Part shown: one piece after another, positions 11,111 through 51,075 of the stretch | Numbering within the stretch: position 1 is the stretch's first letter | Layout: each line of letters starts with the position of its first letter | Assembly (NCBI GenBank): GCA_003332265.1 | Contig: QPGA01000002.1 | Coordinates: 13,037 to 64,111 of the forward strand | Source of the DNA: Candidatus Accumulibacter meliphilus | Lineage (GTDB): Bacteria; Pseudomonadota; Gammaproteobacteria; Burkholderiales; Rhodocyclaceae | Direction: 5' to 3' | Length of the DNA stretch: 51,075 nucleotides | The notes under the pieces: model-generated | Told to the model about the DNA's origin: nothing | What the model saw: the letters and a program-made list of their open reading frames with translations, nothing else | Databases searched by the model: none | Translations under genes and position numbers: made by a program

Positions 11111-12295
11111 ATGGATACTACCCAACGCGAACTGATCATGCAACGCTGGAACGTGATTCAGCACGAACTGCTGCCCGAGTTGAGGGTTGAAGGTCCGCTG
11201 ACACCGAAGTTGGAGAAGGTCGTGCACATCCTGGAATGGGTGCGCATTGAGGAATTCACGGGATCGAACTGGTGTGGCGTGGGGCGTCCGCCGGTAGAGC
11301 GGGCGTGGCTGGCGAACGCTTTCGTGGCTAAGTCGGTGTTGGGGCTCAATACCACGGTAGGGCTGATTGAGCGCCTGACGATAGACCGTGCGCTGCGACG
11401 TATCTGTGGCTTTCCTCTGTGCAAGAAACTGCCTTCTGAAGCCACCTTCTCGCGCGCCTTCGACGAGTTTTCTCAAGCGAATTTGGGCCAGCGGGTGCAT
11501 GAAGCCCTCGTCAAGGCCCATCTCGGGGATGAACTGATCGGACATATCAGCCGCGACGGTACGGCCATTGAAGCACGCGAACATCCGTCCCGGCGCGAGG
11601 CGGCCGTGGCCGAAGCGGTCCCAGCGGCACAGCCCTCGGTGCTCCCGAAGGAAGAGAGCCCTTCCGAAGCGAGTGCGCCAGTGCCAGAAACGCCACCAGC
11701 GGCGAAGAAACGTGGCCGCCCCCGGCGCGGCGAGACACGACCACCGGCGAAGGAGTCGCCGATGCAGCGCCAACGCGGGCAGACGTTGGCGCAAATGCTC
11801 GATGAGATTCCGACGGCGTGTGATCGCGGCACGAAGTGCAACGCCCAAGGCTACAAGGTCAGCTGGAACGGCTATAAGCTGCATCTCGACACCGCCGACT
11901 GTGGCGTGCCCATCGCGGCGCTGCTCTCAAGCGCCTCGATGCACGACAGCCGTGCCGCCATTCCGCTATCACTGATCAGTGCCGAGCGGGTGACCAACCT
12001 CTACGATGTCATGGATGCGGCCTATTGCAGCACCGAATTGCGTGAGCACTGCCGGAGTCTCGGCCACGTTCCGCTGATCGATCACAACCCGCGTCGCGGC
12101 GAAAAGATCGAATTCGCACCGGCCGAGGCCATTCGTTACAACGAACGTACCGTCGCCGAGCGCAGCAACGCGCGGCTCAAGGACGAATTCGGCGGCAACA
12201 CCATCATGGTCAAGGGCGACGCCAAGGTGATGGCGCACTTGATGTTCGGTATCCTGGCGCTGACCGCCGACCAGTTGATGCGATTACGAGAATGA
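11111..12295 (+). CDS. IS5/IS1182-like DDE transposase
   Basis: A 394-residue transposase. The N-terminal DUF772-type region (about 1-110: WVRIEEFTGSNWCGVGRPP, RICGFPLCKKLPSEATFSRAF) precedes an RNase H-like catalytic domain. Likely DDE residues are Asp in SRDGTAIEA (about residue 150), Asp in MDAAYCS (about 304) and Glu in RTVAERSNARLKDE (about 353). Between the first two lies a Pro/Ala-rich linker (about 165-230) with an AT-hook-like KKRGRPRRG. The frame is intact, so the element could be active. Terminal repeats were not identified, so the ends of the element are unknown. Confidence 0.85.
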   Translation: MDTTQRELIMQRWNVIQHELLPELRVEGPLTPKLEKVVHILEWVRIEEFTGSNWCGVGRPPVERAWLANAFVAKSVLGLNTTVGLIERLTIDRALRRICGFPLCKKLPSEATFSRAFDEFSQANLGQRVHEALVKAHLGDELIGHISRDGTAIEAREHPSRREAAVAEAVPAAQPSVLPKEESPSEASAPVPETPPAAKKRGRPRRGETRPPAKESPMQRQRGQTLAQMLDEIPTACDRGTKCNAQGYKVSWNGYKLHLDTADCGVPIAALLSSASMHDSRAAIPLSLISAERVTNLYDVMDAAYCSTELREHCRSLGHVPLIDHNPRRGEKIEFAPAEAIRYNERTVAERSNARLKDEFGGNTIMVKGDAKVMAHLMFGILALTADQLMRLRE

Positions 12296-39495: not shown

Positions 39496-39855
39496 GCGTG
39501 GCTCCCTTAAAGGGGCAGGTGTAAGGGCTGAGATCATTATGCACCGCCTGCCGACTCCGTACGAAAATGTTCTACGGTGGCCAAGGGGCTACGAAACAAT
39601 GCTGCACGGCGACACGGAGGACGGCCAAGAGCACTGAGCCTGTCGGACAATGCGAGCGGATGAGTCGCGGCCGGCCGCCTAGCGCCTGATTGGGGCGAGA
39701 ACTCGCTGCACAATAATTAGTTGGGCATTAATTCAATGCGCCTGCTATAGTTTTCCATGTTGTCGTAGTGGAAACGCCGTGCTGAGTACCCCAACGGTCG
39801 CCTACGCTACAACCCACGCCAAGAGCCACTGAAGACCGGCCGGGGCCATGCGAAC
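39496..39855. other. Divergent region upstream of the injection-system cluster
   Basis: Contains the 5' leader of the YiiX-like gene and, on the plus strand, a locally AT-rich patch (about 39705-39755) that stands out from the GC-rich surroundings. A possible promoter lies within that patch. No gene was recognised. Confidence 0.5.
39743..39751 (+). promoter_or_regulatory. Possible extended -10 promoter of the contractile injection cluster
   Basis: TGCTATAGT has the extended -10 TG and a near-consensus box TATAGT (39746-39751). A weak -35 TTGGGC at 39721-39726 is 19 bases away. An imperfect inverted repeat (GGGCATT and AATGCGCC) covers the spacer and could be an operator. It lies about 105 bases before the first gene. 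Confidence 0.4.
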
Positions 39856-40497
39856 ATGGCGCCGAAACGAGCCATAACAGAAGGACTTTTGATCAGCCTG
39901 CTTGCCATCATGATTGCCGAGGCCATCAAATTTCTGCGGGGTCGCCTGAACGCCACCCTGCCTCGAGAATCCTCCGGCGTACCGGTCGAAGACCTCTTCG
40001 TCTATGCCGGTACCGGCAACGACGAGAGGGTGGTTTTCAAGGCAGACGCAGTGTCCCTCGCGTTGGTCAGAATCGGTGAGGAGACGGCGCTTCGTCAGCC
40101 CGACCACTATGCCACTGTGTCCGCCGACGGCGTACGCCAAAGAGTCGAACCCGAAATCAGGTTGAATTTGTTCGTATTGTTCGTCGCTCGCTTTCCCGAC
40201 GACTACAGCCTGTCTTTGCACCATCTGTCGCGGGTGATTCGCTACTTCCAGAATCACCGCGTCTTCAATCATCAGAACTCGCCGGATCTTCATCCAGATA
40301 TCCCGCAGCTTGTCCTGGAACTCGTGGCGCCGTCATTCTCCGAGCAGAACGAGATTTGGGGCGCTTTGCGCACGGCTTATCAGCCCAGCGCCCTGTACAA
40401 GCTCAGGCTGGTCGTCTTCCGGGACCAAGATGCCCAGCCCCTGGCGACGATCGAGGAAGTGCTGCCGACGACAGTTGGGACGGTGTCCTCCCCATGA
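39856..40497 (+). CDS. Contractile injection system cap protein, DUF4255 (Pvc16/Afp16-like)
   Basis: A 213-residue protein resembling the DUF4255 N-terminal domain of Pvc16/Afp16, which caps the distal end of the tube and sheath. IAEAIKFLRGRLN, VRQRVEPEIRLNLFVLFVARFPDDY, LHHLSRVIRYFQNHRVF and LWGALRTAYQPSALYKLRLV-like segments fit the family. The start is uncertain: ATG 39856 is used, while TTG 39889 (after AGAAGGA) and ATG 39910 (MIAEAI, closer to family starts) are alternatives. First gene of the cluster; its stop overlaps the next ATG. Confidence 0.8.
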   Translation: MAPKRAITEGLLISLLAIMIAEAIKFLRGRLNATLPRESSGVPVEDLFVYAGTGNDERVVFKADAVSLALVRIGEETALRQPDHYATVSADGVRQRVEPEIRLNLFVLFVARFPDDYSLSLHHLSRVIRYFQNHRVFNHQNSPDLHPDIPQLVLELVAPSFSEQNEIWGALRTAYQPSALYKLRLVVFRDQDAQPLATIEEVLPTTVGTVSSP

Positions 40498-41591
40498 AAT
40501 TCGTCCCCTTGTTCGGTCTTCGCGTCAGACACGATTACCATGGCGCCGCCACGTGTCGCGACCTCGCTTGCGAGCCGACACCAGAGACACTGCGTCTTAT
40601 CGAGCGTTATCGCCTGCGGATCAGGGAAATTCCCGGCGGGCTGACGGTGCTCGCGGCGCTCGCTGCCGACGGCCAGACGCCGCTGGTCGGGTTGCCCCGC
40701 GACGAAATCTTCGCCTTCCACCTCCGGGTGTGCAACACCGATTTCGCGCTGTTCACTGATCTTCAGGAACTGAGCGGCAAGACCGATCCGGTCTTTTCGA
40801 ACGCAGCTCTCTCCGGATCCGATCGTCGGACGCTCGATCTGACCGAGCGCCAGTCGTGGAACATGGAAAGCTTCGTCGCCACCCAGGGAGACACCAAGCG
40901 ACAGTTCTCCCTCGCCGGAAATCCGCTGTCCCTGGACGGCGATCCGCTCAAGCCAGCACAGGCTGCTGACTTCAGCCTCGTGTCGCCCGCTGGAACGGCG
41001 CAAATCACCGTCTACGATGCCGCCACCAAGGTACTCACGCTGCAGTTGGGCGCAGCGCAGCCCGATCTGACGGTCCGCTATCGCGTGCGGCCGAATCGGG
41101 ACCGGCGCTTCCTCGCCGATGTCGAGTTGCGTTATGACCAGTCGATGCCTGCTCCGGGAGCAAGCGACGCGTCGTTCGAGATTCCCTTCAAGGTCCGAAC
41201 CGGGCGCTGGGCCTACTACCTGATCACCAACCAGAAAGGGGATTTTTCGATCGTCGACACGAGTGCGGCAAGCCCGTCGATCAGCTTCAGCGCCGCCAAC
41301 CGGACGACGCTGAATGATTTGCCCGACGATCCCGATCCCGATCCCCTGGCGAGCCTGCTCTCCCGGCAATACCCCGATTTGCAGCGCGTCCGATTCCTGT
41401 CGGACGAGGCTGTACCGTGTTCGCTCGCGACGCGCAACGGAATCGAGCTGCGGCTCAGCAACCAGACCCTTCTCCGCCCACTGCCCAATCCAGCGCTCCA
41501 GCACCTGTCGAGGATCAGACAAAAGGCGGGAGCGGGATTTAAGGAGCAGGACATCTTTCACCAGGTCGTCAAGTACCTTCCAACCCACTAG
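40494..41591 (+). CDS. Unrecognised protein of the contractile injection cluster
   Basis: A 365-residue protein that I cannot assign to a family. It is soluble-looking, with no signal peptide or membrane segment. Residues about 1-105 have short beta-like runs (MKFVPLFGLRVRHDY, IFAFHLRVCN), and the middle (about 195-270) reads like beta-sandwich (AQITVYDAATKVLTLQLG, EIPFKVRTGRWAYYLI). The C-terminal third includes YLITNQKGDFSIVD and PDLQRVRFLSDEAVP. The ATG overlaps the DUF4255 stop and the sheath gene follows after 24 bases, so it is surely part of the operon. A structural or assembly part is likely. Confidence 0.7.
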   Translation: MKFVPLFGLRVRHDYHGAATCRDLACEPTPETLRLIERYRLRIREIPGGLTVLAALAADGQTPLVGLPRDEIFAFHLRVCNTDFALFTDLQELSGKTDPVFSNAALSGSDRRTLDLTERQSWNMESFVATQGDTKRQFSLAGNPLSLDGDPLKPAQAADFSLVSPAGTAQITVYDAATKVLTLQLGAAQPDLTVRYRVRPNRDRRFLADVELRYDQSMPAPGASDASFEIPFKVRTGRWAYYLITNQKGDFSIVDTSAASPSISFSAANRTTLNDLPDDPDPDPLASLLSRQYPDLQRVRFLSDEAVPCSLATRNGIELRLSNQTLLRPLPNPALQHLSRIRQKAGAGFKEQDIFHQVVKYLPTH

Positions 41592-41615
41592 GAACTCAAC
41601 CAGGGGACTCATCAC

Positions 41616-43265
41616 ATGGACACTTACAGAACACCCGGCGTATATGTCGAAGAGAAATCAACATTGCCGCCGTCGGTCGCCGAGGTGGCGACCGCGGTGC
41701 CGGCATTTATTGGCTACACGAGTGTCGGACCGGCGGACACGGCCACGCCGAGCGTCGCCCGCATCGCGACGCTGCTCGAATTCGTGACCGCTTTCGGCGG
41801 CGCGCAGCCGGCCACGTTTAAGGTAACCGAGCTGGCCAATCCGGCCGGCGCTGTGGCGGTCGAGCTGACGCCTCCCACCCATCCGTTCTCGCTGTATTAC
41901 GCGCTGAGCCTCTATTTTCTTAACGGGGGTGGACCGTGCTATGTCGTTTCGGTCGGCAACTACGCTTCGACGCCAAGCTTTGCACGCTTCACGACGGGCC
42001 TTGATGCGCTGGAAAAAGAGGACGAACCGACGCTGATCGTGCTCACCGATGCCGCGTGCGTCTTGACGGCCAGCGACTACTACGAGGTGTGCGGACAGGC
42101 CTTGAAGCAGTGTGCCAAGCTGGGTGACCGCTTCACCATCCTCGATGTGATTGGCGGCCAGGTGAAAGAATTCAGAGACGCCCCCAACCTGTCGGCCAAT
42201 CTCAAGTACGGCGCTGCCTATCATCCCTACCTGAAAACATCGCTCAACTACGACTACGACGACAGCGGGGTTTCCGTCACGCTTGCCGAGGTTGCGGTTG
42301 AGGGAACACACAAGCTGGGCGGTGCCAAGGGGATAGCCGTCAGCTTCACCGGTCCTCCCGGCAGTACGCCCAAGGTGGCGGTAAGCACGGCAGGGGACCC
42401 TCTGAGCTTCTCGATCACCGATGGCACGCTGACCATCAAGGGCGCAAAGGACAAGACCGGGACGGATATCGCCGCGGCGTGGAGCACCTGGAAGCAGTCC
42501 AACCAGCCTTTGGGCTTCGATGTCGTCAGCAGTGGCGACGGATCGGGGGTGGTCGCGAGTGCCGATGTGCCGATTACCGCCATCGTTGTCGTCGGAAAGA
42601 GCACAGGCGTGACCCTGGTGAGCATCATGAGCAGCAAGACCGCGCTCTACAACAAGACCAAGGCGGCGCTCGCCGAGCAACGTGTCGTTCTGCCGCCCAG
42701 TTCGGCGATCGCCGGCATTTACGCCCGCGTGGACCGCGAGCAGGGCGTCTGGAAGGCGCCTGCCAACGTCGGCGTGCTCTCCGTTCTCGGGCCCGACGTC
42801 AGGATTACGGATGCACAACAGGAGGATCTCAACGTCGATGCGACTGCCGGCAAGTCGATCAACGCGATCCGCAGCTTCACCGGCAAAGGCACGCTGGTGT
42901 GGGGCGCCCGCACTCTCGCCGGAAACGACAACGAATGGCGTTACGTCCCCGTCCGCCGCTTGTTCATCGTCATCGAGGAATCGGTCAAGAAGGCGAGCGC
43001 GTTTGCCGTCTTCGAGCCGAACGATCAAACCACCTGGCTCAAGGTGCGAGCGATGATCGAGAGCTATCTCTACGGCCTCTGGCAACAGGGGGCACTCGCC
43101 GGGTCGAAGCCGGAAGCCGCGTACTACGTGCGCGTCGGTCTGGGCACGACGATGACGCCGCAGGACGTGCTCGAAGGCCGGATGATCGTCGAGACCGGTA
43201 TCGCCGCAGTCCGACCGGCCGAATTCATCATCCTCCGCTTCTCCCACATGATGCAGACCGCCTGA
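41616..43265 (+). CDS. Contractile tail sheath protein (Pvc2-4/Afp2-4-like)
   Basis: A 549-residue sheath subunit whose contraction drives the tube. The N-terminus DTYRTPGVYVEEKSTLP and VPAFIGYTS is the classic sheath entry. The variable middle (about 200-340) is beta-rich. The C-terminal core includes VWGARTLAGNDNEWRYVPVRRLF, EESVKKASAFAVFEPND and ETGIAAVRPAEFIILRFSH, containing the linker arms. ATG 41616 is 24 bases after the previous gene. Only one sheath gene is in view, whereas PVC and Afp carry three. Confidence 0.93.
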   Translation: MDTYRTPGVYVEEKSTLPPSVAEVATAVPAFIGYTSVGPADTATPSVARIATLLEFVTAFGGAQPATFKVTELANPAGAVAVELTPPTHPFSLYYALSLYFLNGGGPCYVVSVGNYASTPSFARFTTGLDALEKEDEPTLIVLTDAACVLTASDYYEVCGQALKQCAKLGDRFTILDVIGGQVKEFRDAPNLSANLKYGAAYHPYLKTSLNYDYDDSGVSVTLAEVAVEGTHKLGGAKGIAVSFTGPPGSTPKVAVSTAGDPLSFSITDGTLTIKGAKDKTGTDIAAAWSTWKQSNQPLGFDVVSSGDGSGVVASADVPITAIVVVGKSTGVTLVSIMSSKTALYNKTKAALAEQRVVLPPSSAIAGIYARVDREQGVWKAPANVGVLSVLGPDVRITDAQQEDLNVDATAGKSINAIRSFTGKGTLVWGARTLAGNDNEWRYVPVRRLFIVIEESVKKASAFAVFEPNDQTTWLKVRAMIESYLYGLWQQGALAGSKPEAAYYVRVGLGTTMTPQDVLEGRMIVETGIAAVRPAEFIILRFSHMMQTA

Positions 43266-43330
43266 GCGCAGCCGCCACCCACCCGCCACGCCTTTGCCGC
43301 CAACCCAGACACTACGAGGCCTCGACCACC

Positions 43331-43798
43331 ATGGCACTGACCAAAGACGAAATCAGGACTACCTACCCGCTGCCCGTGTACAACTACAAGGTCGAAATCG
43401 ACGGCAAGGCCGTCGCTTTCTCCGAAGTATCGGGCTTGAGCATGGCCTACGAAACCAGCACCTATGTCGAGAGCCCGACCAGCGGCGTCGGCCCACGCCG
43501 GATGTACATGCCCAGCCAGCGAAAATCGGCGACCATCACCATGAAGAAAGGGATGGTCGCCGGCGTCAGCGTACCGGCGCTCTTCGGCTGGATCAGTTCG
43601 ATTCAACTCAATCGCGTTGACAAGAAGGACATTTATGTCCGCCTTTGCGACGAGAGTGGTGCCACGGTGGTCAGTTGGAAAGTGATCAACGCCTTCCCGA
43701 CCAAGCTCGACGCGCCCACCTTCACCGCGAACTCGAACGACGTCGCGATCGAAAGCATGGAACTGATGGCCGACGGCGTCGTCGTCGAGCCGGCCTGA
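43331..43798 (+). CDS. Tail tube protein 1 (Pvc1/Afp1-like, T4 gp19 family)
   Basis: A 155-residue tube subunit: PLPVYNYKVEIDGKAVAFSEVSG and RKSATITMKKGMVAG are the family signatures, followed by the ESMELMADGV close. ATG 43331 follows the sheath gene by 65 bases. Its order and sequence suggest that it builds the main inner tube. Confidence 0.9.
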   Translation: MALTKDEIRTTYPLPVYNYKVEIDGKAVAFSEVSGLSMAYETSTYVESPTSGVGPRRMYMPSQRKSATITMKKGMVAGVSVPALFGWISSIQLNRVDKKDIYVRLCDESGATVVSWKVINAFPTKLDAPTFTANSNDVAIESMELMADGVVVEPA

Positions 43799-43815
43799 AA
43801 CCGGACGGTCCCTCA

Positions 43816-44259
43816 ATGTCGGAAACCGCGGCGAGCCAGCGGGCGCAGTATCCACTGGCGGCCTACAACTTTCGCGTCACCGTCGGCGAGGCGGTGATGA
43901 GCTTCACCGAAGTGTCGGGACTGGCTCGGGAGTACCAGACGCTCACCTACAAGCATGGGCTGAGCTTCTGGGAGGGCGAGTCGATCAGCAGGTTCCGCTA
44001 CGACAAATACGTGCAGCTGACGCTGAAGAAAGGCGTGATCGCCGGCCTTACCGAGATCTACGAGTGGCTGGACAGCGCGGACAGGCTAAGCTTGAGTATC
44101 AGCCTGTGCGATGAGAAGGGAGATGCCGTGGTGACCTGGCAGATCAGGAAGGCGCTGATCGTCAAGCTCGAAGCGCCGCCGCTGCAGGCCAGCGGCAACG
44201 AGGCGGCGATCGAGACGCTGACACTGATGGTGTCCGGGATCGCGGTCGAGCACCACTGA
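43816..44259 (+). CDS. Tail tube protein 2 (gp19 family)
   Basis: A 147-residue paralog of the preceding tube protein: YPLAAYNFRVTVGEAVMSFTEVSG and LTLKKGVIAG, ending EAAIETLTLMVSG. ATG 43816 is 17 bases after it. In PVC-like particles a second tube protein (Pvc5) joins the tube to the spike or baseplate; this or the next gene may do so. Confidence 0.88.
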   Translation: MSETAASQRAQYPLAAYNFRVTVGEAVMSFTEVSGLAREYQTLTYKHGLSFWEGESISRFRYDKYVQLTLKKGVIAGLTEIYEWLDSADRLSLSISLCDEKGDAVVTWQIRKALIVKLEAPPLQASGNEAAIETLTLMVSGIAVEHH

Positions 44260-44283
44260 CACCACCAGACAAGGAGCCCGACA

Positions 44284-44727
44284 ATGAGCGATCCGATCCT
44301 CGGCATGCGGTTCAGCGTACTGTTTCTCGCTGGGGGAGCCGTGCCCAATCCGCTCGACATCCGCTTCCAGAGGGTATCGGGGCTGTCGGCCGAGGTCGAG
44401 ACCGAGGCGGTGAGCGAAGGTGGGCAGAACCTCTACACACAGAAACTGCCGAGAGGCATCAAGTACAACAACCTGGTTCTCGAACGCGGCATGGTCATCG
44501 GTTCGCCGCTCAATCTGGAGTTCAACGCCGCCATGTCCCTGTTCAAGTTTGCCACCTCGAATGTGCTGGTGACGCTGCTCGGCGAGGACAGGCAGCCGCT
44601 TGCCGCCTGGCTGTTTCTCAAGGCCTACCCGGTCAAGTGGTCGACTTCGGATCTCAGCGCCGAGCCCGCGCTGGTGATCGACACGCTTGAGCTTGCGTAT
44701 ACCCGCATGCAGGCCATGCGAGTCTGA
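44284..44727 (+). CDS. Tail tube protein 3 (Pvc5/Afp5-like, gp19 family)
   Basis: A 147-residue gp19-family protein that is more divergent: GMRFSVLFLAGG, RFQRVSGLSAEVETE, IKYNNLVLERGMV and PALVIDTLELAY. It lies directly before the DUF5908 and LysM genes, which is where Pvc5/Afp5 sits, so a tube-initiator role at the baseplate is likely. ATG 44284 after AAGGAG. Confidence 0.87.
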   Translation: MSDPILGMRFSVLFLAGGAVPNPLDIRFQRVSGLSAEVETEAVSEGGQNLYTQKLPRGIKYNNLVLERGMVIGSPLNLEFNAAMSLFKFATSNVLVTLLGEDRQPLAAWLFLKAYPVKWSTSDLSAEPALVIDTLELAYTRMQAMRV

Positions 44728-44729
44728 TC

Positions 44730-44921
44730 ATGCCGGTCGAGATCAAGGAACTGGTCATACGCGTCGTGGTTGGCGACGACCGCGGCGGCGCAGGCAGAGA
44801 GGGGAAGGAGTCCCTCTCCGCCGCGTCGAAGGGCAGATTGGCTACCGCCAACAGCGAAGAAATCGTCCAGGAGTGCGTGCGCCAGGTCCTGCGCATCCTC
44901 GCCAAAGAAAAGGAGCGATGA
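44730..44921 (+). CDS. DUF5908 small protein (Pvc6/Afp6-like)
   Basis: A 63-residue protein starting MPVEIKELVIRVVV, typical of DUF5908, with a variable Gly/Ser middle and a helical C-terminus (IVQECVRQVLRILAKEKER). It lies 2 bases after the tube gene and 1 base before the LysM gene. Its role is not firmly known; in Afp/PVC clusters it is in the same place. Confidence 0.85.
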   Translation: MPVEIKELVIRVVVGDDRGGAGREGKESLSAASKGRLATANSEEIVQECVRQVLRILAKEKER

Positions 44922-44922
44922 A

Positions 44923-45654
44923 ATGGGGCTGGGGAATCTATTCAAGCTGGAAAAGCTGCGGATCGAGGCTTTCAAGGACGCAAAGCGGGAACCCTCCGCA
45001 AATACGCCCTGCATGGAAGTCATGTTCAATCCCACCAGCTACAAGCGAAAGTACGAGGTCGCGTTCTCTTCTCCGCAGCCCATCAACTCGGACAGCAAGC
45101 CTGCAGGCTACAGCTTCACCCCTCCGGGCGAACTGGCCTTCCAGTTCGTTTTTGACGGAACCGGCGTGGCGTATTCCGGCGTCGAGCAGGCGGCGCGCGC
45201 CTTGCGCGGCGAGAGCGTCAAGAAGCAGATCGAGAGGTTCGAAAAGCTTTGCCTGGACATGAACAGCGACAGCCACCAGCCCAACTTTCTCCGCATCTCC
45301 TGGGGGGATCACCTGAAGTTTGACGCGCGGCTGCGCTCGCTCGACATCACCTACAAACTGTTCGACGAGGGCGGCGACCCGCTGCGTGCGGAAATAGACG
45401 CCAGCTTCATTGACGACCGGACCGCCGAAACGATCGCCCGCACCGCCGGCAAGGAGTCTCCCGACCTGACGCATGTCCGAATGGTCAAGAGCGGTGACAC
45501 CTTGCCCTTGCTGTGCAAGGAGATCTACGGATCGTCCGCGCATTACCTGCGCGTAGCGGCCGATAACGGACTCGACGATTTTCGTCGTCTCGTCCCCGGA
45601 CAGACGCTCCGCTTCGCGCCGCTGAAGAGCGGCGAGCGCGCGACCAGAACCTGA
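44923..45654 (+). CDS. Baseplate-tube adaptor with LysM domain (Pvc7/Afp7-like)
   Basis: A 243-residue protein. The N-terminal part (about 30-180) has MEVMFNPTSYKRKYEV and LSWGD-like FLRISWGDHLKFDARLRSLDITY segments of the CIS tube-adaptor family; the C-terminal LysM (about 190-237) reads VKSGDTLPLLCKEIYG and RRLVPGQTLRFAPL. ATG 44923. It joins the spike and tube in related particles. Confidence 0.9.
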   Translation: MGLGNLFKLEKLRIEAFKDAKREPSANTPCMEVMFNPTSYKRKYEVAFSSPQPINSDSKPAGYSFTPPGELAFQFVFDGTGVAYSGVEQAARALRGESVKKQIERFEKLCLDMNSDSHQPNFLRISWGDHLKFDARLRSLDITYKLFDEGGDPLRAEIDASFIDDRTAETIARTAGKESPDLTHVRMVKSGDTLPLLCKEIYGSSAHYLRVAADNGLDDFRRLVPGQTLRFAPLKSGERATRT

Positions 45655-45675
45655 TCATCCCCCGGCCAACCGATC

Positions 45676-47316
45676 ATGAGCGTCGTCACTGCCACCATCC
45701 TGAGCGAGCAAAAGCAGATCGATGAGGTCTATCAGTTGCTTGCGATCGACATTCGTCGCGAGGTGAACCGTATCCCCTGCGCAACCCTCGTGCTGGTCGA
45801 CGGCGACGCTGCGAAGCGGGAATTCGCCCTCAGCAATGACCAGGTTTTCGAGCCGGGAAAGGAAATCGAGATCGTCCTGCGCTACGAAGCGGAGACCGAA
45901 GACGCAACGCTGTTCAAAGGCCGGGTGATCACGCACGGTGTCGAGGCGAGCGCCCGTGGCTCACTGCTCAGGGTCGAGATCAAGGACGCCGCCGTCAAGT
46001 TGACGCAGACGAGGAAGAGCGCGGTGTTTATCGACCAGTCCGATGATGAAGTGATCAAGAAGATCATCGAGGACGGCAAACTCAAGGCCGGGACGGTGGA
46101 AGTGACCCAGCCCAAACATCCGCAGATCGTCCAGTACGGCTGCTCGGACTGGGATTTCCTCGTCTCGCGTGCCGACATCCAGGGGCTGCTCACCGTCGTT
46201 GAAGACGGGGAGATTTCGGTGCGCAAGGCGGACGCGAGCGCGAAGCCCAAGCACCGCTTCGATTACGGCATCGACGAGATCTACGATTTCGAATTCCAGG
46301 TGGACGCCGGCAACCAGTACCCGAGCGTCAAGAGCAGTGGTTGGGATCTCAAGCAGGCCGCGCCCACCGACCCGGCGGACGCCAAGGCATTCTCCCTGTC
46401 GCAGGGCGACCTCGACGGCGCCAAGCTGGCCGACGCCGTCGGCTTCGAACCCTGCCTGCTGTCGCATCCGGTGCCGGTGGCGCAGGAGGAACTGCAAGCC
46501 TGGGCGGATGCGCGCATGATGCGCAGCCGCATGTCGATGATCCGCGGCCGCCTGGCAACCCGCGGACTCGCCGAGCTCAAGCTCCTGGATGTCATCGAGA
46601 TCGACGGCGTCGGCATGCGCTTCAACGGCAAGACCCTGATTACCGGGATCTGTCATCGCGTCGATAGGGACGGTTGGCGCAGCGATATCCAGTTCGGTCT
46701 GTCGCCGCGCGCTTTCTGCCGCGAGGAAGGCGTCGCCGATGTGCCCGCCGCCGGGCTGCTGCCCGGAGTAAGCGGCCTGCAGATCGGCGTTGTCGACAAA
46801 TTCGTCGAGGACCCGGACAAGGAGTTGCGCGTCAAGGTCGTTCTTGCGGGAATCGGCGCCAAGACCGAAGCGCTGTGGGCGCGGCTGGCGGCGCCCGATG
46901 CCGGCAAGGATCGAGGGTGCTTCTTCCGTCCCGAGGAGGGCGACGAAGTCGTCGTCGGCTTCTTCAACCAGGATCCCCGACAACCGGTGATCCTCGGCGC
47001 GCTCTACGGCTCGAAAAACACCGCGCCGCCGGACTGCGCCGAAATCACCAAGGACAACCTCAAGAAAGGCTTCGTCACCAGGGCCGGCACGAAAATCCTG
47101 TTCAACGACGACAAGAAGGCTTCGCTGACGCTCGAAACCGCGTCCGAGAACAAACTCCGTCTGGACGACGACAAGGAAACGATCGAGATTTCCGACCAGC
47201 ACGGCAACAAGATCACCCTCGACAAGGATGGCATCACGATCGAGAGCGCCAAGGATCTCAAGTTCAAGGCAAGCGGCAACGTCGAGATCCAGGGCGCGAA
47301 GGTGGACGTGAAATGA
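45676..47316 (+). CDS. VgrG-like spike protein (Pvc8/Afp8-like)
   Basis: A 546-residue trimeric spike candidate. Residues about 1-345 are a phage GpD/gp27-like base, about 365-460 a gp5 OB-fold (LRVKVVLAGIG, EGDEVVVGFFNQDPRQPVILGALYG), and about 475-546 a beta-prism needle with repeated short strands (HGNKITLDKDGITIES, VEIQGAKVDVK). No effector domain is fused. ATG 45676, 21 bases after the LysM gene. Confidence 0.93.
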   Translation: MSVVTATILSEQKQIDEVYQLLAIDIRREVNRIPCATLVLVDGDAAKREFALSNDQVFEPGKEIEIVLRYEAETEDATLFKGRVITHGVEASARGSLLRVEIKDAAVKLTQTRKSAVFIDQSDDEVIKKIIEDGKLKAGTVEVTQPKHPQIVQYGCSDWDFLVSRADIQGLLTVVEDGEISVRKADASAKPKHRFDYGIDEIYDFEFQVDAGNQYPSVKSSGWDLKQAAPTDPADAKAFSLSQGDLDGAKLADAVGFEPCLLSHPVPVAQEELQAWADARMMRSRMSMIRGRLATRGLAELKLLDVIEIDGVGMRFNGKTLITGICHRVDRDGWRSDIQFGLSPRAFCREEGVADVPAAGLLPGVSGLQIGVVDKFVEDPDKELRVKVVLAGIGAKTEALWARLAAPDAGKDRGCFFRPEEGDEVVVGFFNQDPRQPVILGALYGSKNTAPPDCAEITKDNLKKGFVTRAGTKILFNDDKKASLTLETASENKLRLDDDKETIEISDQHGNKITLDKDGITIESAKDLKFKASGNVEIQGAKVDVK

Positions 47317-47376
47317 CCGCGCAAACCGACCATGGGCCGATGCGGCGGCCCGACGACAACCATTGAAAGGACTACC

Positions 47377-47565
47377 ATGCAGGAAATCAAGCTGGAGCTG
47401 GCGATCGAAGACGCCAACCTGATCCTCGAGGCGCTGGGGAGTCTTCCCTTCGCCAGGGTCTACACGCTGATCGGAAAAATCCAGCAACAGGCCGCGCAGC
47501 AGCTTCAGGAGAGCGGCGCCGCGACGGCTGACGCCGGTCCACCGATGGCCCACACGCTGGAATGA
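47377..47565 (+). CDS. Small protein of the injection cluster
   Basis: A 62-residue protein from ATG 47377 after GAAAGGA: two predicted helices (EDANLILEALGSLPF, VYTLIGKIQQQAAQQLQ) and an Ala-rich tail. It lies between the VgrG-like and gp25 genes and is likely translated. I recall short proteins of this look in tail clusters of phages, but cannot name a function. Confidence 0.65.
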   Translation: MQEIKLELAIEDANLILEALGSLPFARVYTLIGKIQQQAAQQLQESGAATADAGPPMAHTLE

Positions 47566-47569
47566 AGCG

Positions 47570-47986
47570 ATGAGCAGCGACAGCTCCTTTCTCGGCACGG
47601 GGTGGAGCTTTCCGCCGAGCTTTGCCGCGGCGGGAAGCGATGTGCACATGGTTTCGGCGGCCGAAGACATCGAACAGAGCCTGGCGATCCTGCTCACGAC
47701 GCGGCGCGGCGAGCGTGTGATGCAGGAGGACTTCGGTTGCGACCTGAGCGAATTCCAGTTCGCCGAGGTCAGCCAGGGGCTGATCGGCCGCATACGCAGC
47801 TTCATTGCGGACGGCCTGCTTCATCACGAGCCGCGGATCAAGCTGAACGACGTCGACGTTTCGCTGAGTGGCGCCCAGGAGGGGCTGCTCTTGATCACCA
47901 TCGACTACACGGTACGTGCCACCAATTCGCGTTACAACATGGTCTACCCGTTCTACCTGAACGAGGCGACCTCACCGGCCCGTTGA
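47570..47986 (+). CDS. Baseplate protein, gpW/gp25 family (Pvc9/Afp9-like)
   Basis: A 138-residue baseplate wedge part that nucleates the sheath. FLGTGWSFPPSF, EDIEQSLAILLTTRRGERVM and EDFGCDLSEFQF are the family hallmarks. ATG 47570, 4 bases after the small protein. Confidence 0.94.
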   Translation: MSSDSSFLGTGWSFPPSFAAAGSDVHMVSAAEDIEQSLAILLTTRRGERVMQEDFGCDLSEFQFAEVSQGLIGRIRSFIADGLLHHEPRIKLNDVDVSLSGAQEGLLLITIDYTVRATNSRYNMVYPFYLNEATSPAR

Positions 47987-47994
47987 CTGCCATC

Positions 47995-48429
47995 ATGTCC
48001 GATTCCATCCTCATCGAAGGCGATCAGGTCATCTTCCTCCCTGCTTTTTCGCCGGCGATCGTGGTCGTGCAACCCGGCAACCTCGAAGGCAGCGGTCCGG
48101 CGACGATTGGTGGCAAGAAGATCTGCGTAGACGGCGACGAAGCGAAGGTCTCCGTCGCCGGCTGCGCCTACATGACCCCGCAGTATTCGATCCCCGGTAC
48201 CGGGACCTTGAAGATTTCGGCGCTTGCCGGCGACCAGAAGGCCAAAAAGACGCAGACCGGTGGCAAGCCGGTGCTCCTCAAGGGCGGCAACTTCACCGCC
48301 AAGTTCGAGGTCCAGAGCCCGGCGCAGCAGCCGCCTCCCGGGCCGGGAGCGCCGCTACCGGATTCGGCGACCGACTACAGCGGCAAGGGCATGTTCGTCA
48401 CCACCAACAGCAAGTTCATGGGCGACTAG
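47995..48429 (+). CDS. Candidate spike-tip (PAAR-like, Pvc10/Afp10-position) protein
   Basis: A 144-residue protein with beta-rich, Gly-rich strands (KKICVDGDEAKVSVAGCAYM, PGTGTLKISAL) and a Pro-rich linker (PPPGPGAPLP) near the end. Its place between the gp25 and baseplate-J genes is that of Pvc10, the tip of the spike. Sequence similarity to PAAR is not certain by eye. Confidence 0.65.
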   Translation: MSDSILIEGDQVIFLPAFSPAIVVVQPGNLEGSGPATIGGKKICVDGDEAKVSVAGCAYMTPQYSIPGTGTLKISALAGDQKAKKTQTGGKPVLLKGGNFTAKFEVQSPAQQPPPGPGAPLPDSATDYSGKGMFVTTNSKFMGD

Positions 48430-48444
48430 GAAACGAGGAGCGGC

Positions 48445-51075
48445 ATGGCAAACGACCCGAAGGCGACGCTCCCACAAGTGCGCGACGGCACCAGCCAGTC
48501 GGGCAGGATTCTGCCTGAGCTCGATCCGCAGCATGTCCGGGTCGACGAACGCACGACGCGTGACCTGCTGGCTTTCGTGCAAGCCTACGCGCGCGAGCTA
48601 AAGTATTTCGGCATCGACGATCCCGATCAGGCACAGGGAGACTGGAGCGGCTTCGTCGGCTCCATCGACCTCGACCTTGCCGCACGCTATACGGACGAGC
48701 CGGAGAAATTTTCGCCGGAGGCTGCGAGCGCGTACGCGCGGCCGCACTTTGCCCTGTTGCTCACTTTTCTCAAGCTGCTCGAGAACACGCGCGCGCAACT
48801 CAACACCCTGACCGGGCGGCATCTTGAATTCTTCTACCGCGACGTCCTGCGGATGATCCGCAAGCGCGCTGTTCCCGACCAGGTCCATGTGCTGGTCGAA
48901 CTCGACGGCCGCACCGATGCCCTGCAACTGCCTCCGGGAACGGCACTGCGCGCCGGCAAGGACCGCCTGGGCAGGGACCTCCATTACCGCACCAGGAACG
49001 AGCTGATCGCCAGTCAGGTGCAGGTGGCGCAAGTCAGCTCGCTGCATACCGAGATCCGGCGCATCGGCATTCGGGAGGCGAGCCCCCACCAGTATCTGGT
49101 ACGCGGCACTTTCGAGGCAGCGTTCGTGGCGATGCTGAGAATCGCACTCGGTCAGCCGAATCCCGGCGATCCGCTGCCGGTGCCGATCTATGCGGGTGTG
49201 CCGCCCGCCAAGTCGGACGTGCGCTTCGAAAACCTCGTTACGGCCCGCGATCTGATCGCTATCGTCGACAGCGGGCTGGGCATGTCGATCTTCGCGGACT
49301 TCCGCGAGCTGATGCGCTTGAAGCAGCTGCGCGCGAAGAGCGATGCGGGGGACTGGCAGAGCATCAACGGTTATCTTACCGAAGCTGGCGGGAGGCACGA
49401 CCGGGCCTTCGAGATCGATCCGATGGATTCGAGCAACTTCGAGGCCAACCTGGCGGCAGCGCTGAACAAGAAGCTGGCAACGCTGTTCGATGGCTTGCCC
49501 GATGTCGATACGGTGGAGGAGGCATACACCGCGTACCGCGATCGCCCCGAAGACGTGAAAGCATTTCTTGAGACAGCGCTGAGCCCGCTGACGCTGGCCG
49601 ATTTCAAGGCCATGATGGACGTCAAGGTGCTCAAGGTTGACAACCAATGGGAAGCGATCAATCAACTACTGGAAGCGGCCGGCCAGCGCAAGCGCAATGA
49701 TTCCGCGTTCCGGCTGCCCCCCGCCGAACGCCAAGCGCACGATTTCAACCGCAAGCTGGAAGCCGCTGTCGCGAGCGTCGATGAGAAAAAATTCGACTTC
49801 CCCGGTGGCATCGATGCCTATTTCGAAGCGTTTCTCGCCGTCGAGAGCTACTTCTTCATGTCGGCAGAGAACTTCATGTTCATCATGTCCGTTGCCGCTC
49901 CGCAGAACGCCTGGACGACGGCGGAAGATCGGGATTGGCAGAAGGTCTACGAGATCGTCGGCGCGGCACACCGGGAAATGATCTACGCAAGGCGGCGCAA
50001 GGTGCTCGAGAAAGATGGCAAACGGGCTTTGCACGACCTGCTGCTCAAGGTGCTCGGCCTCGACACGATCGAGGATGATGACCAGGCCCTCGCAGGGCTT
50101 GGCGCACTCGGTCTGACCAAAGCTGACCAGCAGGACCTCGCCGACGTCGCCAGGACGATCGAGCCGACCGATTGGGGTCGCGTTTACCGGATACTCGAAA
50201 TCGCCCAGCGCAACCGCGAGAACTTCAAAGACCCCGTCGCCGAGAAAGTCGAATGGCGCAATCTCTATGCCGCCGCCGATGCCAGGGCGGTGCTCCCACA
50301 GCCAGCGCAGGCGGAGCCTGAGGCTTTGCCACGCTGGAAGACCTTCGGCTGCGGCGAGCAGCGCTGCGCCGCGCTGCCCGTTCCGGCGCCGGTATTCGGC
50401 TGGGCGATGTCGTCGCCGCTGCTGGCCCTTGCCGAGGGAAAGCGGACGATCAACCTGACGCTCGGCTTCACCGCCGATCCGCAGTGCTTCGATATCGAGA
50501 AAATCCGGGAGTTGCTCGCGCCGACGGACACAGCCCCAAGCGTCCCGGCCTGCAACCCCTTCCAGGTGCAGATGAGTACCGCCAAGGGCTGGATCGAACC
50601 ACAGTCGGTGGAGATCACCTGGAACGAACCGGCGATGCACTATCCGCCGCCGCCCGATGTGGACATCACCAAGCTGCGCGCGTTGATGTTCCGTGTCGTC
50701 CTGTCGGAGGACCAACCGCCGCTCGTTCCGCCAACGCTCGCAGTGCACGGCATCGAAACGCCCGTGCCGGTTCTGCGCCTGATGCTCAGGCCGATCTGGA
50801 ACGAAGAAGATTCCTGCTACGTCACCCGTTACCAGCCTTTGAGCAAACTGACGCTGATCCGCGCCCGCCTGGTCGTCGACGTCAAAGGACTCGCCGGTCT
50901 GTCCATTCGCAACGACCAGAGTAACTCCTCAATAACCCCGGGCATTCGTGCATGCGCTTGGGTCGGAGCCGGAAGGCTGCGGTCACTCGCAGAGCACGCG
51001 CCTGAAGTTTCGGTCGAGGGGATAGACCCAGACGGTTTTGATGGGCAGCAAGGCTTGGTGGTGGACATCGAGCTT
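48445..51075 (+). CDS. Baseplate J-like protein (Pvc11/Afp11-like), 3' end disrupted
   Basis: From ATG 48445 (after GAGGAG) the frame is open for 877 codons to the window edge. The first approx 826 codons look like Pvc11/Afp11: LDPQHVRVDERTTRDLLAF, HLEFFYRDVLRM, VHVLVELDGRTDALQLPPGT, then a long helical middle and VDVKGLAGLSIRNDQ. In relatives, that last motif is followed by a KPFxPFG block, but here the sequence turns into SNSSITPGIRAC, unrelated. Foreign DNA therefore seems to enter near 50920-50930 and the remaining open frame is chance read-through. Without an intact copy elsewhere the baseplate would not assemble. Confidence 0.82.
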   Translation, partial: MANDPKATLPQVRDGTSQSGRILPELDPQHVRVDERTTRDLLAFVQAYARELKYFGIDDPDQAQGDWSGFVGSIDLDLAARYTDEPEKFSPEAASAYARPHFALLLTFLKLLENTRAQLNTLTGRHLEFFYRDVLRMIRKRAVPDQVHVLVELDGRTDALQLPPGTALRAGKDRLGRDLHYRTRNELIASQVQVAQVSSLHTEIRRIGIREASPHQYLVRGTFEAAFVAMLRIALGQPNPGDPLPVPIYAGVPPAKSDVRFENLVTARDLIAIVDSGLGMSIFADFRELMRLKQLRAKSDAGDWQSINGYLTEAGGRHDRAFEIDPMDSSNFEANLAAALNKKLATLFDGLPDVDTVEEAYTAYRDRPEDVKAFLETALSPLTLADFKAMMDVKVLKVDNQWEAINQLLEAAGQRKRNDSAFRLPPAERQAHDFNRKLEAAVASVDEKKFDFPGGIDAYFEAFLAVESYFFMSAENFMFIMSVAAPQNAWTTAEDRDWQKVYEIVGAAHREMIYARRRKVLEKDGKRALHDLLLKVLGLDTIEDDDQALAGLGALGLTKADQQDLADVARTIEPTDWGRVYRILEIAQRNRENFKDPVAEKVEWRNLYAAADARAVLPQPAQAEPEALPRWKTFGCGEQRCAALPVPAPVFGWAMSSPLLALAEGKRTINLTLGFTADPQCFDIEKIRELLAPTDTAPSVPACNPFQVQMSTAKGWIEPQSVEITWNEPAMHYPPPPDVDITKLRALMFRVVLSEDQPPLVPPTLAVHGIETPVPVLRLMLRPIWNEEDSCYVTRYQPLSKLTLIRARLVVDVKGLAGLSIRNDQSNSSITPGIRACAWVGAGRLRSLAEHAPEVSVEGIDPDGFDGQQGLVVDIEL
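50923..51075 (-). mobile_element. Probable inserted element interrupting the baseplate-J gene (partial)
   Basis: The baseplate-J similarity stops at about 50922 in a well-conserved motif, and a minus-strand reading frame ending at 50983 begins soon after, as for an insertion whose gene faces left and ends near its tip. The boundary is estimated; the far side is beyond the window. An assembly chimera is the alternative. Confidence 0.5.
50983..51075 (-). CDS. C-terminal fragment of an unidentified protein at the right edge
   Basis: On the minus strand 30 codons run from the window edge to a TGA at 50985-50983: the end of the peptide is KTVWVYPLDRNFRRVLCE. I do not recognise it. Given its location in the insertion it may be the end of a transposase or other element-borne protein. 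Confidence 0.35.
   Translation of the reverse strand, partial: KLDVHHQALLPIKTVWVYPLDRNFRRVLCE

What the first reader, a model, noticed from the sequence alone, without database searches (positions are those of the whole stretch)
39856..51075. Extracellular contractile injection system (eCIS) cluster in a betaproteobacterial chromosome
Thirteen tightly spaced plus-strand genes include a DUF4255 cap, a sheath, three gp19-type tube proteins, DUF5908, a LysM adaptor, VgrG-like spike, gp25 and baseplate-J, in nearly the order of Photorhabdus PVC pvc5-pvc11. The cap gene, normally last, is first here. No capsid, portal, terminase, integrase or T6SS membrane genes are present. Such particles can deliver toxins or trigger metamorphosis; here the target and cargo are unknown and no effector gene is seen in the window.
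Basis: partly seen in the sequence, partly recalled or inferred. Interest (0 to 1): 0.85.

Follow-up and report, generated by a model that had tools for sequence, protein, structure and literature searches.

The report
Transposon-broken injection-particle operon in Accumulibacter
A sewage-treatment bacterium carries the genes for a syringe-like protein particle of a known kind, with a probable swappable cargo gene just beyond the window, but in this genome a jumping element has cut one of the particle's baseplate genes in two.

Summary
The finding is real: window 39856-51075 is the first 11 kb of a 28.6 kb eCIS operon in a Candidatus Accumulibacter genome, and all 13 genes are there.

Corrections. 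(1) The nearest solved systems are AlgoCIS and Anabaena tCIS, not PVC; gene 2 is the cap adaptor. (2) Cap-first order is normal: 69 of 69 relatives whose sequence reaches that far. (3) The baseplate-J gene is interrupted at window 50921 by an IS66-type element that fills the scaffold gap past the window; it is intact in A. necessarius, so this copy is probably silent. (4) A candidate cargo gene ends the operon (C2:79214-81463).

Most interesting: the cargo's first ~45 residues recur at 11 places in six genomes with related operons, ahead of differing C-termini, suggesting a loading tag with swappable payloads. The genome holds four eCIS loci, the most among 199 family genomes by cap count. New member of a known kind.

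The parts
39856..40497 (+). Cap protein (DUF4255/Pvc16_N; Alg16A/Cis16A-like, short form, 213 aa)
   Evidence: PF14065 E 1e-28; AlgoCIS cap 'Algo1' 4.9e-14, Anabaena All3327 2.5e-13
40494..41591 (+). Cap adaptor (Alg16B/Cis16B homologue), 365 aa, no Pfam family
41616..43265 (+). Contractile sheath
   Evidence: PF17482, PF04984; AlgoCIS sheath 5e-130
43331..43798 (+). Tube protein 1 (gp19)
   Evidence: PF06841 7.5e-34
43816..44259 (+). Tube protein 2 (gp19)
   Evidence: PF06841 5e-23
44284..44727 (+). Tube protein 3 (gp19)
   Evidence: PF06841 9e-26
44730..44921 (+). DUF5908 small protein
   Evidence: PF19265 4e-19
44923..45654 (+). CIS_tube/LysM protein (Afp7/Alg7-like)
   Evidence: PF19266 1e-47; All3321 1.7e-44
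45676..47316 (+). VgrG-like spike (Afp8/Alg8-like)
   Evidence: PF04717, PF05954; AlgoCIS spike 6.6e-128
47377..47565 (+). 62-aa conserved small protein, unknown
   Evidence: no Pfam or NCBIfam hit; detected in 7 of 80 named relatives
47570..47986 (+). gp25 baseplate wedge
   Evidence: PF04965 1.5e-23
47995..48429 (+). CIS spike tip
   Evidence: PF19267 7e-54
48445..50919 (+). Baseplate J, first 825 codons only; gene interrupted after this point
   Evidence: aligns to A. necessarius J residues 1-833 of 1477; the rest of the gene lies beyond the element
50913..50920 (.). 8-bp target-site duplication, repeated at C2:66316-66323 on the far side of the element
50921..51075 (.). Left end of an IS66-type transposable element that continues through the scaffold gap C2:64112-66009 to C2:66315
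   Evidence: ~25-bp inverted repeat shared with L026 head; an 86% relative at C68 carries a PF03050 transposase

Best explanation
This is the 5' part of a clade-Ib (AlgoCIS/tCIS-like) extracellular contractile injection operon, C2:52892-81463, in a Candidatus Accumulibacter genome. Design of the system: cap and cap adaptor close a sheath-tube tail; J, gp25, spike and tip form the baseplate; a fibre with a variable outer part would pick the target; an AAA ATPase would thread the last gene's product, recognised by its ~45-residue N-terminal leader, into the tube for injection. Payload and outer fibre differ between species while the particle genes stay conserved. In this genome an IS66-type element has split the J gene, so this locus is most likely a recently silenced copy. 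Shown: gene identities, order, the downstream genes, the insertion, leader conservation, differing payloads. Inferred: fibre role, loading by AAA, release from the cell, injection, loss of function, and the target.
For: Pfam matches of 10 of 13 window genes, J by its part beyond the gap, and the cap adaptor by profile and fold. Downstream on the same scaffold: J C-terminal part (PF04865), a repeat-rich 855-aa protein with a weak match to a protein of solved structure named bd2133 (8ond, 1.9e-4; probable fibre), tape measure (PF19268 8e-29), AAA (PF00004 8e-28), candidate cargo. Insertion: inverted repeats, 8-bp duplication, halves that adjoin exactly on the intact J of A. necessarius (1-833 and 834-1477), further copies of the element end in this genome. 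Cargo: leader 83% identical to A. necessarius over 47 aa and then unrelated; the A. necessarius payload carries Ntox4, the A. iunctus payload carries eCIS_core. Other operon proteins are 73-97% identical to A. necessarius (best local match; sheath over 338 of 549 residues), while the fibre matches well only in its N-terminal ~130 residues (81%).
Against: The assembly is a draft with an unread 1,898-N gap at the insertion, so the element's interior was not seen; a mixed population with intact cells is not excluded. The split J could in principle be made as two chains. No expression, particle, loading or injection data exist. The own payload has no recognisable toxin domain. The tape-measure gene has a single N at C2:77149 where the frame changes, so its intactness is unknown.
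Confidence: 0.8

Rival explanations
1. The locus still works: J is made as two polypeptides, or the element is carried by only part of the population, and particles are assembled.
For: The probable fibre, 709-aa, 707-aa, AAA and cargo genes downstream are all open frames, so decay is not advanced; the 3' part of J keeps a 621-codon frame with its own possible start.
Against: Both contig ends run into the element with matching inverted repeats and an 8-bp duplication; the one intact J seen in the genus is a single 1477-aa chain (A. necessarius; A. iunctus has it only as pieces at contig ends); the cut falls inside the chain ahead of the Baseplate_J domain.
Confidence: 0.15
2. The shared cargo leader is only a recombination boundary next to the AAA gene, not a loading signal.
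For: The leader follows the AAA gene directly and similarity breaks soon after it; in G061 two further cargo genes are preceded by AAA 3'-end remnants. In A. iunctus only residues 1-40 match.
Against: The motif persists at 31-47% identity across genera, in four cargo genes of G061 and in two G063 places that were not in the model, one of them on another contig. N-terminal leaders with AAA-dependent loading are shown for PVC (PMC11495950; abstract, passages and section 3.1 read).
Confidence: 0.25
3. A membrane-anchored or cytoplasmic CIS (T6SS-iv, tCIS or Streptomyces type) rather than a released particle.
For: Clade Ib holds released and anchored systems (PMC8894135, PMC8894136, passages read); tCIS is among the closest solved relatives.
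Against: A probable fibre gene with a variable outer part is present and no TssM is found; no search for transmembrane anchors was made.
Confidence: 0.15
4. Prophage or tailocin remnant.
For: All contractile tails share sheath, tube and J.
Against: No spike match in 50,697 phage records at E 1e-5; cap, CIS_tube, spike tip, tape measure and AAA families of eCIS; upstream genes look like housekeeping genes by eye.
Confidence: 0.02

Closest known systems
AlgoCIS of Algoriphagus machipongonensis (clade Ib eCIS)
   Same: Cap plus separate cap adaptor, depositor names Algo1 and Algo2 fitting a cap-first order; cargo with shared N-terminus and different C-termini (PMC8894135, passages and section 8 read)
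   Different: Three gp19 tubes and a separate PF19267 spike-tip gene (not compared gene by gene with AlgoCIS), cargo without eCIS_core in this genome, J interrupted
tCIS of Anabaena PCC 7120
   Same: Chain names give cap All3327, cap adaptor All3326, sheath All3325, CIS_tube All3321, spike All3320, i.e. our order if read downwards (the reading direction is inferred)
   Different: Anchored in thylakoids through tail-fibre and baseplate extensions (PMC8894136, passages read); such anchors were not looked for here
Photorhabdus PVC / Serratia Afp (clade Ia)
   Same: Homologous sheath, CIS_tube and spike; AAA and cargo genes downstream
   Different: Much weaker similarity (spike Pvc8 5e-51, CIS_tube Pvc7 1e-18); longer cap and no cap adaptor (PMC8894135 section 8)
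eCIS-associated toxins with N-terminal signal peptides and DUF4157
   Same: Candidate cargo gene last in the operon with a conserved N-terminal leader
   Different: Leader conserved across genera; the PVC study reports rare homology among signal peptides (PMC11495950 section 3.1 read)

Membership tests
eCIS | Cap protein with DUF4255/Pvc16_N | tested here: met
   PF14065 1e-28
eCIS | At least ten core genes in one cluster, one of them eCIS-specific (criterion of PMC8213781, section 18 read) | tested here: met
   cap, sheath, three tubes, CIS_tube, spike, gp25, tip, J, tape measure, AAA by Pfam; the authors' own HMMs were not used
eCIS | Tape measure and AAA ATPase downstream | tested here: met
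   PF19268 8e-29, PF00004 8e-28 on the same scaffold
eCIS | No T6SS membrane complex | tested here: met
   no PF06761 (TssM) match in the genome, control rings in E. coli; TssJ, TssL and ClpV not searched
eCIS | No phage head genes nearby | tested here: inconclusive
   neighbouring frames read by eye only
eCIS | Complete set of intact structural genes | tested here: not met
   J split by an IS66-type element
eCIS | Released contractile particle that injects cargo | not testable with these tools
   needs microscopy
Clade Ib (AlgoCIS/tCIS type) | Separate cap adaptor protein | tested here: met
Clade Ib (AlgoCIS/tCIS type) | Best similarity to clade Ib structures over clade Ia | tested here: met
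   no tree with named Ib and Ia reference systems was built
Clade Ib (AlgoCIS/tCIS type) | Spike-cage extension of J | not tested
   J is 1477 aa in A. necessarius, but the domain was not modelled
eCIS cargo (EAT) | eCIS_core/DUF4157 domain | tested here: not met
   absent from the own candidate cargo; present in the A. iunctus gene at the same place
eCIS cargo (EAT) | N-terminal leader shared with other cargo, next to the AAA gene | tested here: met
IS66 family element | Inverted repeats and 8-bp target duplication | tested here: met
   that 8 bp is typical of IS66 is recalled
IS66 family element | DDE_Tnp_IS66 transposase | tested here: inconclusive
   found in an 86% related copy at C68; the interior of this copy is N

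The most novel reading that the evidence does not exclude
In a proteobacterial sub-lineage of clade-Ib eCIS (Accumulibacter, Rubrivivax, Acidiferrobacterales), payloads carry one portable ~45-residue address tag cognate to the operon's AAA loader, and are exchanged as [AAA 3' end - leader - payload] cassettes that can also pile up in tandem, in the manner of polymorphic-toxin cassettes. Accumulibacter keeps an arsenal of up to four different eCIS and turns copies off by transposon insertion.
Probability: 0.45. Interest if true: 0.62.

Novelty: new member of a known kind. Interest (0 to 1): 0.45.

Why it matters
Candidatus Accumulibacter drives biological phosphorus removal (recalled), and no paper holding both 'Accumulibacter' and 'contractile injection system' was found in the library. 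Four eCIS loci in one genome suggest such particles matter in sludge communities, against bacteria, protists or both. The conserved leader ahead of differing payloads gives a compact, testable candidate loading tag, where the PVC study reports rare homology among signal peptides. The broken J gene warns that an operon that looks complete in a draft genome may be silent.

Tried and rejected
Prophage, tailocin and canonical T6SS readings were rejected. 'Cap-first is unusual' was rejected. 'Scaffold gap is only missing sequence' was rejected once both edges proved to be ends of a repeated element. Searches for the payload's function gave nothing useful: Pfam, NCBIfam, PDB (best PDB hit a chance-level stomatin match, E 0.84). 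The outer fibre gave only a sub-threshold H-type lectin hint (E 0.17). The promoter scan found one weak site at 39722-39751, not interpreted. The 62-aa gene stayed unexplained. Pfam and NCBIfam gave nothing for gene 2; PDB searches and the fold placed it. The VIA-align list showed no further cap families; that absence is not evidence.
Full report
WHERE IT IS. The window is G000:C2:13037-64111 of a 4.7 Mb draft genome, 120 contigs, 91% complete. Its nearest orthologues lie in named Accumulibacter records (L042-L044, 87-91% identity for the CIS_tube protein). A. necessarius (G022 = L044), A. iunctus (G023 = L043) and MAG-199 (G003 = L042) are listed as same genus (the equations rest on equal contig lengths). 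So the host is a Candidatus Accumulibacter.

OBSERVATION. The 13 genes are confirmed one by one. Gaps never exceed 65 bp and the first two genes overlap by 4 bp. Ten genes match their Pfam family. J matches only through its part beyond the window. The 365-aa second gene and the 62-aa gene match none.

CAP-FIRST IS NORMAL. Of 80 named relatives fetched through the CIS_tube protein (the best 80 of 102), profiles made here found the cap in 69, and it was the first gene of the set in all 69. The other 11 have no sheath detected (L042) or a sheath within 233 bp of the locus edge. Gene 2 was detected in 54 of 80. The seven nearest (L042-L048) have a spike-tip gene like ours by our profile (7 of 7; none of the other 73), and six of six whose contig reaches have three tubes. 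A quick spike tree of 80 rows puts own cluster 1 with those seven (SH-aLRT 100) and own cluster 2 elsewhere, so the two appear to be separate lineages (L048 is a long branch, and the tool warns of long branches meeting).

BEYOND THE WINDOW. After a run of 1,898 N come the C-terminal part of J (PF04865), an 855-aa repeat-rich protein taken as the fibre (no Pfam; weak PDB match 1.9e-4), a 709-aa and a 707-aa protein of unknown role, the tape measure (PF19268), an AAA ATPase (PF00004) and a 749-aa last gene. The operon spans C2:52892-81463. The tape measure varies in length: 519 aa in A. necessarius, 748 in A. iunctus, here 600+227 around one N, with internal repeats.

THE J GENE IS BROKEN. The window's J frame leaves the homology after codon 825. 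J residues 1-825 align with A. necessarius J 1-833 and the downstream part with 834-1477, exactly adjoining. Between them lies sequence whose outer ends are inverted repeats of about 25 bp, flanked by the same 8 bp (window 50913-50920; C2:66316-66323). The 306-bp right end has 10 matches in this genome, two of them the ends of this insertion itself; of the other eight, two cover the whole 306 bp (C34 100%, C68 86%), three are partial (99-158 bp, 99-100%) and three are 25 bp only. It matches in 8 of 28 genus genomes, three of these by short weak hits; only 26 candidates or fewer were scored per genome, so these are lower bounds. The C68 copy encodes an IS66 transposase (PF03050, 6e-20) and a DruA-like protein. 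I conclude that an IS66-type insertion, 2,359 bp by the assembly's own gap length, interrupts J; the G013 copy, by its two end hits, is about 2.65 kb. A. iunctus J lies at contig edges and cannot show intactness; A. necessarius is the one intact genus example seen.

CARGO. The last gene's first 47 residues are 83% identical to those of the A. necessarius gene in the same place, then similarity ends. In 28 genus genomes the leader was found in G000, G022 and G023 (here over residues 1-40), plus a weak hit in G015 (E 0.036, 108-codon frame). Those three are three of the four carriers of this operon type seen; the fourth, G003, is 72% complete. Payloads differ: A. necessarius ends in Ntox4 (2e-7), A. 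iunctus has eCIS_core (2e-32) and another C-terminus, ours has no known domain. Own and A. iunctus share a further stretch (124 aa, 68%), so the genes are mosaics. Among the nine proteins compared similarity lies mainly in the N-terminal parts (up to ~250 residues between the eCIS_core genes of G061); the G063 protein there is cut by its contig end. In Acidiferrobacterales G061, four cargo genes in a row carry the leader, and remnants of the AAA 3' end precede two of them. A 9-row leader profile (A5) found 11 places in six of seven genomes with related operons (nine by construction; two new in G063, one just behind its AAA gene) and none in G064, whose AAA is only 55% identical. In 399 genomes of the order it found our own plus two weak hits (E 1e-4 and 6e-4) in open frames of 75 and 21 residues, probably chance; but there only 17 or fewer first-look candidates per genome were scored, so this negative is soft. 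Other operon proteins are 73-97% identical to A. necessarius, while the fibre keeps its N-terminal ~130 residues at 81% and then diverges. Fibre and payload thus look like the exchanged parts.

HOW IT LIKELY WORKS. By analogy with AlgoCIS and PVC, and as inference: the AAA protein takes the leader and loads the payload into the tube; the fibre binds a target; the baseplate triggers sheath contraction. PVC loading by signal peptide and Pvc15 is from PMC11495950 (abstract, passages, section 3.1). With J split, assembly of this copy probably fails.

FOUR LOCI. The genome has four Pvc16_N and four CIS_tube loci: this one, C31:22330-49573 (sheath, PAAR, tape measure, eCIS_core, AAA), C2:119300-141688 (two sheaths, J, eCIS_core, AAA) and C44 from 24284 (sheath, J). 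eCIS_core occurs five times, none of them in cluster 1. Of 199 family genomes drawn, 49 have Pvc16_N; ours has 4, A. necessarius 3, the other 47 one each. By CIS_tube, 24 of 28 genus genomes have at least one and none but ours more than two. The two markers disagree for A. necessarius (3 caps, 1 CIS_tube), so locus counts depend on the marker. Genomes with two to five eCIS are on record (PMC8213781, passage), so four is high but not unprecedented.

LITERATURE. No paper held both 'Accumulibacter' and 'contractile injection system'. A looser search matched 2,442 papers; of the 12 listed, none was about eCIS in Accumulibacter by title and abstract start. PMC12923769 (abstract, sections 6-7 read) and PMC12210884 (passages) do not hold the word Accumulibacter. 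PMC8213781 was read in sections 6, 10 and 18 and passages; PMC11297309 and PMC8894136 in passages. The library lacks most subscription journals.

VERDICT. An ordinary kind of system in a noteworthy host, with a broken baseplate gene and a testable cargo leader.

Noticed in passing
G000:C2:154267-171107 (L031): Minus-strand tail-like cluster (sheath, Baseplate_J, Phage_base_V) outside the Pvc16_N and CIS_tube hits; a tailocin or tail-only phage remnant.
   Followed up: partly
L026:9338-11823 (C2:75347-77832): Tape-measure protein with internal repeats; length differs between Accumulibacter species (519, 748, at least 827 aa), which might change particle length.
   Followed up: partly
L147 (G061 C96:183662-189659): Four tandem cargo genes with the same leader and AAA 3'-end remnants in an Acidiferrobacterales genome, with a transposase-like frame (by eye) among them.
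   Followed up: yes
L026:5065-9321; G022:C1:85433-89698: The 709-aa and 707-aa genes here are one 1421-codon frame in A. necessarius.
   Followed up: no
G063:C300:11666-11791: Leader-like N-terminus on a contig other than the operon's; possible orphan cargo.
   Followed up: no
G000:C47:30575-30808: An eCIS_core domain protein on a contig with none of the four eCIS loci; possible orphan cargo.
   Followed up: no
C2:81615-83196: PIN-type toxin-antitoxin genes directly after the operon (by eye).
   Followed up: no
window 11111-12295: IS5-like transposase frame (by eye).
   Followed up: no
L163 (G000 C68:24300-27784): IS66-type element carrying a DruA-like second gene (PF14236, 3e-41).
   Followed up: no
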